Below, one piece after another: positions 56,593 to 60,709 of a stretch of DNA of 64,000 bases (position 1 is the first letter of the stretch; each line of letters opens with the position of its first letter). Below the pieces are notes generated by a model. The model was given only the letters and a program-made list of their open reading frames with translations. It was not told where the DNA came from and did not search any database. The stretch is from Bacteroidota bacterium. GTDB lineage: Bacteria > Bacteroidota > Bacteroidia > Flavobacteriales > Weeksellaceae. A program made the position numbers and the translations under genes. The stretch spans positions 1-64,000 of the forward strand of contig JAFDZI010000005.1 in the NCBI GenBank assembly GCA_018266955.1, written 5' to 3'.

Positions 56593-56623
56593 AAAACTGA
56601 CTCCATTCTGGGGTCAGTTTTTT
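56593..56623. terminator. Bidirectional terminator between ppiD-like gene and xre gene
   Basis: The 12-bp stem AAAACTGACTCC / GGGGTCAGTTTT (one G-U pair on each strand or mismatch-free reading) is flanked by A and T runs. Confidence 0.85.
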
Positions 56624-56945
56624 ATGATATGTTCTTTGGATTGAATATTCTTAGTACTTCGTTCATCATTTTTTTATCAGATACTAACATTACCATTATG
56701 CTGTTGTTAATGGTACTTTCATTAAATATTTGATGAATATTGGTGTCTTTAGATGTTTCAAACAAATCCTGAATATTTACTCCTAATTTTTCAGCGAGTA
56801 ATGGAATAAATTCAGATTTAACATCTGAAATTTCATTTTCCCAGTTAATGTATGTCTTTCTATCAACACCAACAAAATCTGCAAGTTCTTGTTGAGAAAT
56901 TTGTGCTTTTGTTCTAAGAATTCTTAATTTTTTTCCAACTATCAT
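56622..56945 (-). CDS. XRE-family helix-turn-helix regulator
   Basis: This 107-residue protein has an HTH_3 domain (about 3-58, LRILRTKAQISQQELADFVG then DRKTYINWEN) and a short C-terminal helical part (about 60-107) for dimerisation or ligand sensing. It is divergent from the six-cysteine/GLPGLI operon, with 128 nt between the two starts. A perfect 13-bp palindrome lies over its own -33 element, so autorepression and control of the divergent operon are likely. The start at 56945 is preferred: the longer frame begins beyond the -7 box. Confidence 0.8.
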   Translation of the reverse strand: MIVGKKLRILRTKAQISQQELADFVGVDRKTYINWENEISDVKSEFIPLLAEKLGVNIQDLFETSKDTNIHQIFNESTINNSIMVMLVSDKKMMNEVLRIFNPKNIS

Positions 56946-56959
56946 TTTTATTATTTTTA

Positions 56960-57001
56960 CAAAAATAGTAAAAATGTACAATTATTGCCACAAACTTTGT
57001 G
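56960..57001 (-). promoter_or_regulatory. xre promoter with overlapping 13-bp palindrome
   Basis: On the minus strand TTTG (56991-56994) and TATTTTTG (56960-56967) are spaced by 23 nt. The perfect palindrome CACAAACTTTGTG (56989-57001) covers the -33 element, as an autoregulator site would. Confidence 0.6.
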
Positions 57002-57035
57002 TAATAAATTCTGTTATGATTAATATAACTTCTTC

Positions 57036-57043
57036 TAAATTTG
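57036..57043 (+). promoter_or_regulatory. -7 box (TAAATTTG) of the six-cysteine/GLPGLI operon
   Basis: Consensus -7 element 30 nt upstream of the first ATG (57074). No -33 TTG at good spacing; an activator may be needed. Confidence 0.5.
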
Positions 57044-57073
57044 TTTTATTAATAATTTAAAAAAAAATATATT

Positions 57074-57559
57074 ATGAAAAAATTAATGCTAGTATTTGTA
57101 TTACTAATTTCGGTATTTTGTTTATCGAATGATAAGGTAACTGTATTCTCTGACTCGAGTTTCAAAGAAATGAAAATTAATAAAAAAGACATTTCTAAAA
57201 CTCTTAACGGAAAAGAGATGAAATTAAGATTTATTATTGGTCAATCTATAGAGGGTAAAATAACCTCTATTGAAATTGAAAGTCTTGATGGTTCAAAAAA
57301 AGTTAATGAAATTATTAATTTAGAAGAATTTAAATCAGATATTAAGGATTTTATTCATACATTGCGATACGATAATGTACAAAGTACCTATGGTGGTGTT
57401 CCAGTTTCTGTAAAACCAAGTTGTTATGATTCATGTACAAAAAAATGGGATTGTTTCAATAAACCAACTGAGGCTGGAGTTTTTTTATGTGCAGAGGACT
57501 GTTTTATCGAATGTTATTTAATCACTGTTAAACAGAGTACCTCTCTAAATTCTAATTAA
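57074..57559 (+). CDS. Secreted six-cysteine protein (first paralogue)
   Basis: This 161-residue protein has a signal peptide (about 1-18), a Lys/Glu-rich middle part, and a C-terminal cysteine module: Cys117, 121, 127, 139, 143 and 147 with spacing C-x3-C-x5-C-x11-C-x3-C-x3-C and the conserved KPTxxGxxLC. The third gene of the operon has the same module with identical spacing. Six cysteines could make three disulfides or hold metal. I do not recognise a known family. It is first in a three-gene operon and lies 8 nt before the GLPGLI gene. Confidence 0.65.
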   Translation: MKKLMLVFVLLISVFCLSNDKVTVFSDSSFKEMKINKKDISKTLNGKEMKLRFIIGQSIEGKITSIEIESLDGSKKVNEIINLEEFKSDIKDFIHTLRYDNVQSTYGGVPVSVKPSCYDSCTKKWDCFNKPTEAGVFLCAEDCFIECYLITVKQSTSLNSN

Positions 57560-57567
57560 TTTGTTTT

Positions 57568-58395
57568 ATGAAAACCCTCTTTTCATTTTTCTTTTTCTTT
57601 ACATTGCTAAATCTCATTTCAGCTCAAGAAATGACGGTTCAATATGATTATAATAAACAGAGAAACATAGAAGATACTCTCAGAACCAAAGAAATAGTTT
57701 TTTTGAAAATAAATGGAAAGATGTCTTCTTTTTTTAGCCAAAACGATTATTTGGCAGATTCTATTGTTGCAGCAAACGATAAAAACAATGTTCGTACTTC
57801 TTTTAGAAACCTACCGGAAAGTGATTTGGGCTATCATATCGACAAAGATCTTGCTAACCAAAAAGTAACTTATTTTTCTGATGATTTTTTGGATCAACAA
57901 TTTTCCTATGAAGAGAAACCTAATTTTAAATGGAAAATTACCAATACAAAGAAAAATATTCTCGGATATGAGGCTGTTTTGGCAACCACCAACTATGCTG
58001 GTAGAGATTATGAGGCGTATTTTACCGATAAAATCCCTGTGCAAGATGGTCCCTATAAGTTTTGTGGTTTGCCAGGTTTGATATTGGAAATTTCGGACAC
58101 TCAAAAAAAGCATATTTTCAAAGTCATTGGTATATCAAATAAAAAAAACGACATACAACTGGATATGAATAACAGAAAATACATCATGGTCACAAAACCA
58201 AAATATGTAGAAGTAAGGAAAAATTACGAGGCCAACCCTATGAAAAGAATGTTCGAATTGATGAATTCTACCCAGATATATGAAAGAGTAGATCCCAATG
58301 GCAATGTAGTTGATTTAAAAAAAATGAACTTCCAATTACAAAAGCAATTTCAAGAAGAATTTAAAAGAAAAAACAACATCGAAATACAAAATTAA
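57568..58395 (+). CDS. GLPGLI family protein
   Basis: This 275-residue exported protein has a signal peptide (about 1-20) and the family motif CGLPGLI at 166-172 after FTDKIPVQDGPYKF. The family (TIGR01200) is confined to Bacteroidota, and no function has been shown that I know of. The N-terminal half (about 21-115) and the C-terminal basic tail (QLQKQFQEEFKRKN) fit the family. It lies between two six-cysteine paralogues with 8 and 6 nt gaps, so the three proteins probably act together outside the inner membrane. Confidence 0.88.
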   Translation: MKTLFSFFFFFTLLNLISAQEMTVQYDYNKQRNIEDTLRTKEIVFLKINGKMSSFFSQNDYLADSIVAANDKNNVRTSFRNLPESDLGYHIDKDLANQKVTYFSDDFLDQQFSYEEKPNFKWKITNTKKNILGYEAVLATTNYAGRDYEAYFTDKIPVQDGPYKFCGLPGLILEISDTQKKHIFKVIGISNKKNDIQLDMNNRKYIMVTKPKYVEVRKNYEANPMKRMFELMNSTQIYERVDPNGNVVDLKKMNFQLQKQFQEEFKRKNNIEIQN

Positions 58396-58401
58396 AAAGT
58401 C

Positions 58402-58962
58402 ATGAGAAAAAATTTATTAGTAAAACTATTGTTCATTGTAACATTGTTTACCATTCAACCAATATTGGCAAATATTCATTTAGATCCAATTCACAATTCA
58501 GATTATTACAAAGATTTTCGTAAGAATGAATCCCCCAAAGGCATAGTATTTAAAGAATTGGTAGGCGTCCATACGGTTTTACCAAAAAATACTGACGATT
58601 ATACCATTTATAAAAAAGACAGCCAAGGGAACGGTTATTATTTTAAAGTTTTGGTTCATCCTGTTACTCAAATGCCAATTGCAACCTCTTTTGCTGCGGA
58701 AAACAAGGAAATTAGTAAAGAAACAACTTTAGTTTTAATTAGTGCCAGCAAAGAACTTCTTGGTAAAGATAGTAAGGTAGAATACACAACAGATGAGGGT
58801 GGTCCTATTTTTTCGGAAGCGGCAACGAAATGTGTCATCCGTTGCAACCGAGAAAGTGGCTGTTATGACAAGCCAACGAATCTTGGAGCATTATTATGTA
58901 GTTTGAATTGCAATTTAGAATGTGATAAGAAAACCAAAACAATATCCCAAAGTGTAAACTAA
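58402..58962 (+). CDS. Secreted six-cysteine protein (second paralogue)
   Basis: This 186-residue protein has a signal peptide (about 1-24), then a different N-terminal part from the first paralogue, and a C-terminal module with Cys144, 148, 154, 166, 170 and 174. The spacing is identical to the other copy (x3, x5, x11, x3, x3), and KPTNLGALLC matches KPTEAGVFLC. N-terminal parts share little, so the cysteine module seems to be the conserved business end. It is the last gene of the operon and is followed by a hairpin terminator. Confidence 0.65.
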   Translation: MRKNLLVKLLFIVTLFTIQPILANIHLDPIHNSDYYKDFRKNESPKGIVFKELVGVHTVLPKNTDDYTIYKKDSQGNGYYFKVLVHPVTQMPIATSFAAENKEISKETTLVLISASKELLGKDSKVEYTTDEGGPIFSEAATKCVIRCNRESGCYDKPTNLGALLCSLNCNLECDKKTKTISQSVN

Positions 58963-58985: not shown

Positions 58986-59018
58986 CAAAACTGACACCTC
59001 GTAAGGAGTCAGTTTTTT
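58986..59018. terminator. Bidirectional terminator between the cassette and the TPR regulator
   Basis: The stem AACTGACACCT / AGGAGTCAGTT (one mismatch, 4-nt loop) is followed by T runs on the plus strand and has an A run on the other side. Confidence 0.8.
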
Positions 59019-60709
59019 TATGGGTTTTCATTGGCAAATAAGGACTCGTATTTTTGTCCTAGCTTTTTCTTAAGTCTTTGTTTGGCTTTCTTTATAGCCT
59101 CAGTACTTATTCCTAATAAGTGAGTAATTTCTATAGGAGGAATGCCTAGTTTGAGCAAAATAATAAGCCGCATATTGGATTCGGTAAGTTCATCAAAATT
59201 TTCGGTTAAATAGCTGTAGTATTCAGGATATGCCAAGATGAAAGTGTCTTTAAATTTAAACCAATTTTCGTCCGTCATCAAGTGGGAGTCCAGCATATTC
59301 CTTACATCCGCTATTTTTTCAATATTTTTTACTGATTTTGATTTTTCCAATTGCAATAATTCCGCATTCAGTTTTTCAATTTGTTGGTTTTTCTCTTTTA
59401 GATATTGCTTATAAGAATCTATAGAATGTTGTGTTTCTTTGAGCTTATTTTCGGATTTTATTTTTTCAATTTCAGAGTGTAACATCCAATTTTGGTGTTC
59501 CGCTTTTTCCGCTTTTAACTTTTTATTGATGGCTTGCAGTAAAAGAACTCCCCCTATGATTGAAAATAATAATAAAGCGATAAGGAAATTATTTTTGTAT
59601 TGGCTAACTTTTATTTTTGCCTCCTCTTTTTCCTTTTCATGGTTAATTGCTGCAATCTGTGCGTTGTATTTTGCATATTCTATCGTTTCGGGACCATCAT
59701 AATTTTTTAAAATTTTTTCCAGGTGGTCTATTTTTCTACGCCAAGTAATTTCTTGTTCAATATCATTTTTTAGAATAGCAATCGGTGTTAGAATTTTTAA
59801 AATTTCTAACTCCGAAGATTTGTAAGTGTCCTTACTCAAAGCTATGTTATAAGCTTCTTTTAGGATTTTTTCGGCTTGCTCAGGGTTGTTTTGCTGCCAA
59901 TAGATTTTACCTAATGCAATTTGCGCAAACATTTGGTTTTGGAGGGCATTTTCCTTTTTTGAAAATTCAATGTCCTTCAATAATAAGCCAATCGCTTTAT
60001 TGCCTTGTTTTAGTTCCCAATAGAGAAGCGCTTGGTTGCCATAGATTTTTGCAATTCTTATAGTATCACGCTGCCTTTCTGCAATTTCGAGCGCTTGAGA
60101 GAAGTGTTTTTCTGCTTCTTTATAGTTTTTAAGCCTTAGATGCCCTATTCCTATATTGTCATACAAGGCTGCAAGCAAGTTTTGATCCATAGTATTTTTT
60201 ACTGATTGTTTAAGAAAATGTATGGATTTTTGATGTTGTTGGATGGTGGAAAGGTAATAGCCAATAAATCTGAAACTCTCTTCAGGGTGAATGAGGTCTT
60301 CTTCGGGGATTTTATTAATCTCATCACTCAAACGAATGACAATGGGTAAAGATTGTGGCATGTTTCTGAACTGATAAAGATATTGTGCATACTGTACCTG
60401 TAGCCAAATTTTCAGGTGTTCATAGTTCTGTTCTTCTGCCCAACGGATGGCTTTCTCAAATTTTTCTTTCGATTGTTTGTTTTCTTTTTCGTTTTGGTTA
60501 TGGATGATTTTTAGAATTTCATCAATGCATTGTTTTTCCTTTTGAGATAATGATTGTCCAATTTCTATCTTTTGGGTAATTGTTTTAGCATCTATATACT
60601 TTTCATATCGTTTAGAATTGTCATTCGATCGGCATTGTATGATAAAGAATAAATAAAAAAGAACAGAAATAAAATGGGAAAATTTAATCGTAGGATCGTT
60701 TTGTTTCAT
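59018..60709 (-). CDS. Membrane-anchored TPR protein with C-terminal LuxR-like HTH
   Basis: This 563-residue protein has an N-terminal signal or lipid-anchor stretch (FFIIQC, Cys near 26), a TPR array (about 60-330, e.g. AALYDNIGIGHLRLKNYKEA and AKIYGNQALLYWELKQGNKA), one membrane helix (about 375-392), a coiled coil (about 400-465) and a C-terminal HTH (about 505-560, LGIPPIEITHLLGISTEAIK). So TPRs face the periplasm and the DNA-binding domain the cytoplasm: a one-component transmembrane regulator common in Flavobacteriia. It is convergent with the six-cysteine operon and may control it. The ligand is unknown. Confidence 0.8.
   Translation of the reverse strand: MKQNDPTIKFSHFISVLFYLFFIIQCRSNDNSKRYEKYIDAKTITQKIEIGQSLSQKEKQCIDEILKIIHNQNEKENKQSKEKFEKAIRWAEEQNYEHLKIWLQVQYAQYLYQFRNMPQSLPIVIRLSDEINKIPEEDLIHPEESFRFIGYYLSTIQQHQKSIHFLKQSVKNTMDQNLLAALYDNIGIGHLRLKNYKEAEKHFSQALEIAERQRDTIRIAKIYGNQALLYWELKQGNKAIGLLLKDIEFSKKENALQNQMFAQIALGKIYWQQNNPEQAEKILKEAYNIALSKDTYKSSELEILKILTPIAILKNDIEQEITWRRKIDHLEKILKNYDGPETIEYAKYNAQIAAINHEKEKEEAKIKVSQYKNNFLIALLLFSIIGGVLLLQAINKKLKAEKAEHQNWMLHSEIEKIKSENKLKETQHSIDSYKQYLKEKNQQIEKLNAELLQLEKSKSVKNIEKIADVRNMLDSHLMTDENWFKFKDTFILAYPEYYSYLTENFDELTESNMRLIILLKLGIPPIEITHLLGISTEAIKKAKQRLKKKLGQKYESLFANENP

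What the first reader, a model, noticed from the sequence alone, without database searches (positions are those of the whole stretch)
57074..58962. Paired six-cysteine secreted proteins around a GLPGLI protein
Seen: three tightly packed genes (gaps 8 and 6 nt). The first and third encode exported proteins whose C-termini share the exact spacing C-x3-C-x5-C-x11-C-x3-C-x3-C plus KPTxxGxxLC, while their N-termini are unlike. Known: GLPGLI (TIGR01200) is a Bacteroidota-only family of unknown function. Inference: the cysteine module is the functional end, and the three proteins form an extracytoplasmic assembly, for example a redox, metal-binding or toxin-like system controlled by the divergent XRE protein.
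Basis: partly seen in the sequence, partly recalled or inferred. Interest (0 to 1): 0.78.

Follow-up and report, generated by a model that had tools for sequence, protein, structure and literature searches.

The report
Paired six-cysteine proteins flanking GLPGLI
A small operon in a relative of Chryseobacterium makes two exported proteins that share a six-cysteine helical tail and, between them, a GLPGLI protein predicted to have the bowl shape of the lipoprotein carrier LolA; the trio is inherited as a unit in related bacteria, which gives a testable idea of what the unexplained GLPGLI proteins do.

Summary
In detail: P1 (57074-57559), GLPGLI (57568-58395) and P3 (58402-58962), with two identical C-x3-C-x5-C-x11-C-x3-C-x3-C modules. 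The modules are homologous; no Pfam, NCBIfam, PHROGs or PADLOC model covers P1 or P3. A profile finds the module in 16 of 320 genomes of the window's family (one hit rejected) and credibly nowhere outside it. Of 19 loci examined, 16 have GLPGLI (or its remnant) directly adjacent, two have it third gene on behind an ABC transporter, one is a decayed gene without it. Order P1-GLPGLI-P3 is exact in 11, with a divergent XRE gene in 9. All three proteins are under purifying selection. AlphaFold models: the module is a two-helix hairpin (three stacked disulfides inferred); GLPGLI is a LolA/LolB/RseB-type half-barrel, closest to the PNGase F-II bowl domain (Z 15). More generally, about half of GLPGLI genes in two congeneric genomes adjoin some small secreted Cys protein (20/41 versus 1/39 matched controls). 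Best reading: GLPGLI is a dedicated periplasmic carrier for cognate small disulfide-bonded exported proteins. Binding is untested; toxin, redox and metal readings have no positive support.

The parts
56622..56945 (-). XRE-type HTH regulator (107 aa from ATG), divergent from P1
   Evidence: HTH_19 E 1e-10, HTH_3 E 3e-10; XRE gene at this place in 9 of 11 P1+P3 loci
56946..57073 (.). Divergent intergenic region: palindrome CACA-n5-TGTG (TTCCACA-n5-TGTGGAA in Chryseobacterium) and a TAnnTTTG box upstream of P1
   Evidence: alignment of four loci; sequence read directly; function inferred
57074..57559 (+). P1: exported protein, 161 aa, own N-domain plus six-Cys module
   Evidence: ORF; no Pfam/NCBIfam/PHROGs/PADLOC family; homologues
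57422..57514 (+). Six-Cys module of P1
57568..58395 (+). GLPGLI protein, 275 aa, predicted LolA/LolB-like half-barrel with C-terminal helices
   Evidence: TIGR01200 E 1e-49; AF2 model; PNGF-II N-domain Z 15.0, RseB Z 10.0, LolA Z 9.9
58402..58962 (+). P3: exported protein, 186 aa, beta/alpha N-domain plus six-Cys module
   Evidence: ORF; AF2 model; homologues
58831..58923 (+). Six-Cys module of P3, predicted two-helix hairpin

Best explanation
P1-GLPGLI-P3 is an accessory, XRE-controlled operon of an exported carrier and two cargo (or partner) proteins. P1 and P3 pass the inner membrane by Sec and fold in the periplasm, where each C-terminal module becomes an alpha-hairpin stapled by three stacked disulfides (C1-C6, C2-C5, C3-C4, inferred). 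The GLPGLI protein is a LolA/RseB-type bowl that holds its cognate P1 and P3 in the periplasm and hands them to, or across, the outer membrane. It is one instance of a wider arrangement in which GLPGLI paralogues are encoded next to different small secreted cysteine proteins, often followed by a CarboxypepD_reg protein that looks like an outer-membrane barrel. Shown: gene arrangement, its conservation and co-evolution, the module's homology, selection, predicted folds. Inferred: disulfides, binding, delivery, final location and benefit.
For: GLPGLI directly adjacent in 16 of 19 module loci, third gene on in two more; exact order in 11. Pairwise distances of P1, GLPGLI and P3 correlate (Spearman 0.86-0.92), and module-linked GLPGLIs form one clade (100/97). 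The GLPGLI model matches the PNGF-II bowl domain, VioE, RseB/MucB and LolA; profile-sequence match to PNGF-II E 8e-4. In this genome 8/16 and in its congener 12/25 GLPGLI genes are next to a small secreted protein with at least 2 Cys, against 1/39 size-matched secreted genes (Fisher p 8e-5 and 1.6e-5); usually the small gene is directly upstream. All mature Cys of P1 and P3 lie in the module and are even in number. Dedicated LolA paralogues exist in Bacteroidota: LolA2/LolB2 lie in the flexirubin operon (PMC11885536).
Against: No binding or complex was tested. The LolA-like fold is shared by proteins with other roles (VioE enzyme, RseB sensor, ependymins). AF2 alignments are shallow (11-12 rows; mean pLDDT 73-76). 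P1 and P3 have no lipobox on inspection, so they are not LolA-type lipoprotein cargo. The neighbour pattern is weak in two other genomes under strict adjacency (3/15, 2/15), and tandem clusters are not independent. Many GLPGLI genes have no small neighbour.
Confidence: 0.42

Rival explanations
1. Antagonism: P1 and P3 are secreted hairpin proteins that harm competitors and GLPGLI (with an ABC transporter in two genomes) gives self-protection.
For: Small secreted disulfide-type proteins, patchy distribution (16 of 320 genomes), XRE control, ABC ATPase and permease between module gene and GLPGLI in G018 and G052; alpha-hairpinins are antimicrobial in plants.
Against: dN/dS about 0.04-0.25 in all three genes and near zero in the module between close relatives, so no hypervariability; no PADLOC, PHROGs or toxin-family match for P1 or P3.
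Confidence: 0.15
2. Capture of a ligand or metal: P1 and P3 are secreted binding proteins (metallophore- or hemophore-like) and GLPGLI with an outer-membrane barrel returns the loaded form.
For: Several GLPGLI genes precede CarboxypepD_reg barrel-like proteins; six Cys could bind metal.
Against: No barrel gene in this operon; the Cys geometry fits stacked disulfides in an exported protein; no metal-type regulator beside it.
Confidence: 0.15
3. Envelope sensing: GLPGLI acts like RseB/MucB, sensing its partners in the periplasm, and P1/P3 are the ligands or outputs.
For: RseB and MucB are among the best fold matches (Z 9-10); PhoP directly controls several GLPGLI genes in Riemerella (PMC9603813).
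Against: No anti-sigma factor or membrane regulator in the cassette; XRE proteins are cytoplasmic.
Confidence: 0.13
4. The linkage is only operonic convenience: three exported proteins without direct contact under one regulator.
For: Gene content varies (P1 missing in G109 and G275; order changed in G030).
Against: Adjacency to GLPGLI survives those changes; the wider small-Cys/GLPGLI pairing is far above background.
Confidence: 0.15

Closest known systems
GLPGLI family (TIGR01200; Pfam PF09697 Porph_ging)
   Same: the middle protein is a clear member (169 bits, cut-off 50)
   Different: family function is unknown; only 3 papers in the library mention it; pairing with small secreted Cys proteins was not found described
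PNGase F-II N-terminal bowl domain (4r4x, 4r4z, 7zgn; PF22252)
   Same: closest fold (Z 15.0, 173 residues) and weak sequence match (E 8e-4)
   Different: no catalytic PNGase domain; extra C-terminal helices
LolA/LolB and RseB/MucB periplasmic half-barrels
   Same: predicted half-barrel over about residues 17-210, Z 9-10; exported
   Different: no significant sequence match; partners here are not lipoproteins; many paralogues per genome
alpha-hairpinins and twin-CX3C/CHCH helical hairpins
   Same: two helices with CX3C stripes facing each other (model)
   Different: six instead of four Cys; C-terminal module of a larger bacterial protein; no sequence relation

Membership tests
GLPGLI (TIGR01200) | profile score over the curated cut-off and GLPGLI motif | tested here: met
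   169.3 bits vs 50; motif GPYKFCGLPGLILEI in the translation
LolA/LolB-like half-barrel | fold | tested here: met
   AF2 model; Foldseek E 6e-4 for LolA 2w7q, VIA Z 9.9
LolA/LolB-like half-barrel | significant sequence similarity to LolA or LolB | tested here: inconclusive
   profile search of PDB sequences finds PNGF-II (E 8e-4) and 7zgn (E 0.08), no LolA
LolA/LolB-like half-barrel | binds lipoprotein acyl chains | not testable with these tools
   P1 and P3 lack a lipobox on inspection, so a different cargo is assumed
alpha-hairpinin | helix-loop-helix with CX3C motifs | tested here: met
   helices 139-151 and 160-177, block pLDDT about 89-95 over most of the module
alpha-hairpinin | short peptide with four cysteines | tested here: not met
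   six Cys in a module of a 160-186 aa protein
T9SS cargo | C-terminal sorting domain | tested here: not met
   no NCBIfam sorting-domain match for P1 or P3 at E up to 1; many relatives end at or just after the last Cys
toxin-immunity or defence system | recognisable toxin, immunity or defence protein | tested here: not met
   no PADLOC, PHROGs, Pfam or NCBIfam match for P1 or P3

The most novel reading that the evidence does not exclude
GLPGLI proteins are a large Bacteroidota set of dedicated LolA-fold periplasmic carriers, many matched to their own small disulfide-bonded exported protein, forming an undescribed export or display route (Sec, then GLPGLI, then a CarboxypepD_reg outer-membrane barrel); the paired six-Cys cassette is a two-cargo version of it.
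Probability: 0.28. Interest if true: 0.8.

Novelty: new variant of a known kind. Interest (0 to 1): 0.58.

Why it matters
GLPGLI is a family with up to 28 copies per genome and no known function. The predicted LolA-type bowl and the repeated pairing with small secreted cysteine proteins turn it into a testable question: is each GLPGLI protein the private carrier of its neighbour? The six-Cys cassette is a compact model, with two cargo candidates, clear homologues, natural losses and one regulator. If true it would add a periplasmic delivery route to a phylum already known for unusual secretion.

Tried and rejected
Fold matches for P3: none convincing (Foldseek best E 0.15; best VIA Z 5.1), so no fold family is claimed. 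Module hits outside the family were inspected and rejected: G343 shows no six-Cys module at the site, G818 is a different CNGQGDC..GTG..C...C stretch; inside the family G105 is a partial match without the Cys ladder. NCBIfam and Pfam near-hits for P1/P3 (YqfC, ETRAMP, PG1828 and the like) are all below cut-off and judged chance. Plasmid and phage records: no match to P3. Lipoprotein status: a Cys near the P1 signal end is not in a lipobox and is Ser in one relative. The first named-genome scan with P3 alone found nothing; the alignment scan found 11 loci. The C39-type exporter and SPASM-like neighbours in G170 and G264 (named by inspection) are limited to these two genomes and were set aside.

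Full report
Observation. The middle protein is a member of TIGR01200 (169.3 bits, cut-off 50) and of Pfam Porph_ging. Both flanking proteins carry C-x3-C-x5-C-x11-C-x3-C-x3-C with KPTxxGxxLC. In 464 kb of this genome in six frames the spacing occurs only at these two places, and never in 20 triplet-shuffled controls. The two protein families align only over the module (43 columns, 33% identity, hhalign probability 98.8, E 6e-17). No Pfam, NCBIfam, PHROGs or PADLOC model covers P1 or P3; P3 relatives scanned with Pfam and P1 relatives with NCBIfam gave only sub-threshold hits.

Distribution. The genome (2.45 Mb, 59 contigs) has only this pair. A profile of the module finds 16 of 320 genomes of the window's own family (one of these, G105, is rejected on inspection). 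Draws of 395 genomes from the phylum and 396 from the order add no credible case outside the family; the two weak hits, G343 and G818, are chance or another motif. Named relatives are Chryseobacterium species, Amniculibacterium aquaticum (same genus group as the window) and Frigoriflavimonas asaccharolytica. P3 has no match in plasmid or phage records.

Linkage to GLPGLI. I examined 19 module loci. Eleven have the exact order P1-GLPGLI-P3, including two separate copies each in C. echinoideorum and C. binzhouense. One has P1-P3-GLPGLI (G030). Two have GLPGLI-P3 without P1 (G109, G275). One has GLPGLI and a frameshifted P3 (G030 contig 4), and one has P3 behind the surviving 3' end of a GLPGLI gene near a contig edge (G168). 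In G018 and G052 the order is module gene, ABC ATPase, permease, GLPGLI (the module gene is broken in G052). One decayed P3 (G276) has no GLPGLI. So 16 of 19 are directly adjacent and in 2 more GLPGLI is the third gene on. GLPGLI genes number 5 to 28 per genome, far too few for this to be chance.

The cassette as a unit. Pairwise distances of the three proteins over 12 loci correlate with Spearman 0.86 to 0.92. The GLPGLIs next to the module form one clade (100/97). dN/dS between relatives is about 0.04 to 0.25 for all three genes and near zero in the module for close pairs, i.e. purifying selection. A divergent XRE gene precedes P1 in 9 of the 11 exact-order loci, from three XRE subfamilies by inspection; the other two have a TPR-type gene there. 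In four loci the divergent region is alignable, with a palindrome (TTCCACA-n5-TGTGGAA in two Chryseobacterium loci, CACA-n5-TGTG in the window) and a TAnnTTTG box upstream of P1, which from general knowledge resembles the Bacteroidota -7 element.

Structure. P3 (12 aligned sequences, mean pLDDT 75.7, pTM 0.70): a four-stranded sheet plus helix, then the module as two helices, 139-151 and 160-177, with block pLDDT of about 89-95 over most of it. C1 and C2 lie on the first helix, C3 just after it, C4, C5 and C6 (i, i+4, i+8) on one face of the second. There is no convincing PDB fold match for P3. GLPGLI (11 sequences, pLDDT 72.8, pTM 0.67) is a half-barrel matching the PNGase F-II N-terminal bowl domain (Foldseek E 2e-8, Z 15.0 over 173 residues), VioE (Z 10.4), RseB (Z 10.0) and LolA (Z 9.9). 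A profile-sequence search also picks PNGF-II first (E 8e-4), and 7zgn, a PNGase deposited as 'Glpgli family protein', at E 0.08.

A wider pattern. In the window's genome 8 of 16 GLPGLI genes, and in its congener 12 of 25, have an immediate same-strand neighbour that is a small secreted protein with at least two Cys in the mature part; among 39 secreted genes of 200-350 aa in 464 kb of the same genome, 1 has (Fisher p 8e-5 and 1.6e-5). The small gene is mostly directly upstream (-1 to 93 nt). These small proteins are of several unrelated kinds; the ten tested with NCBIfam match nothing above cut-off. Paralogues within a cluster share the signal peptide but not the mature part. In other genomes the effect under strict adjacency is smaller (3/15 in G018, 2/15 in G052), partly because a second GLPGLI gene intervenes. 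The linked state is scattered over the GLPGLI tree (13 changes, shuffled mean 17). Several such pairs are followed by a long protein with a CarboxypepD_reg domain, probably an outer-membrane barrel; in a genome of another family of the order (G339) the order is divergent XRE, small Cys protein, GLPGLI, CarboxypepD_reg-like protein.

Mechanism. The most economical reading is that GLPGLI is a periplasmic bowl that holds its cognate small exported protein(s) and passes them on. The module is the constant part that the bowl, or a later receptor, could recognise, while the N-domains differ. Precedent: LolA paralogues in Flavobacterium johnsoniae, one pair of which lies in the flexirubin operon (PMC11885536). 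Literature on GLPGLI itself is thin: three papers in the library, of which one shows direct control of several GLPGLI genes by PhoP in Riemerella (PMC9603813). I rate the carrier reading at 0.42; antagonism, ligand capture, RseB-like sensing and mere operonic convenience follow at 0.13-0.15 each.

Limits. Signal peptides were called by a simple rule. Alignments for AF2 were shallow. Gene calls come from ORFs, not from trained gene finding. The literature library holds only open-licence papers, so 'not described' means not found there.

Noticed in passing
L106, L108, L110, L113, L214, L215 (other contigs of the window's genome): Other GLPGLI genes of the same genome are preceded by unrelated small secreted Cys proteins; paralogues within a cluster share the signal peptide but not the mature part.
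   Followed up: partly
L016 5371-6615 and L057 5437-6661: A short ABC ATPase and a permease without Pfam match sit between a six-Cys gene and a GLPGLI gene in two genera.
   Followed up: partly
L213 2764-7283 (another family of the order): Divergent XRE, small Cys protein, GLPGLI, 923-aa CarboxypepD_reg-like protein: same layout outside the window's family.
   Followed up: partly
window 59018-60709, minus strand: TPR protein with a C-terminal regulator-like part, convergent with the cassette; a TPR-type gene stands divergently in front of P1 in G170 and G264.
   Followed up: no
L051 710-4525 and L053 2190-10707: C39-type peptide exporter, SPASM-like fragment and double-glycine-type peptides beside the cassette in two Chryseobacterium genomes (named by inspection only).
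   Followed up: no
L014 5156-5600, L056 5300-5676, L057 5239-5350: Decayed module genes (frameshifts or stops), showing that the cassette is repeatedly lost.
   Followed up: partly
L143 around 1369-1455: A different Cys motif, CNGQGDCFNPGTGLGLY..C...C, weakly resembles the second half of the module.
   Followed up: no
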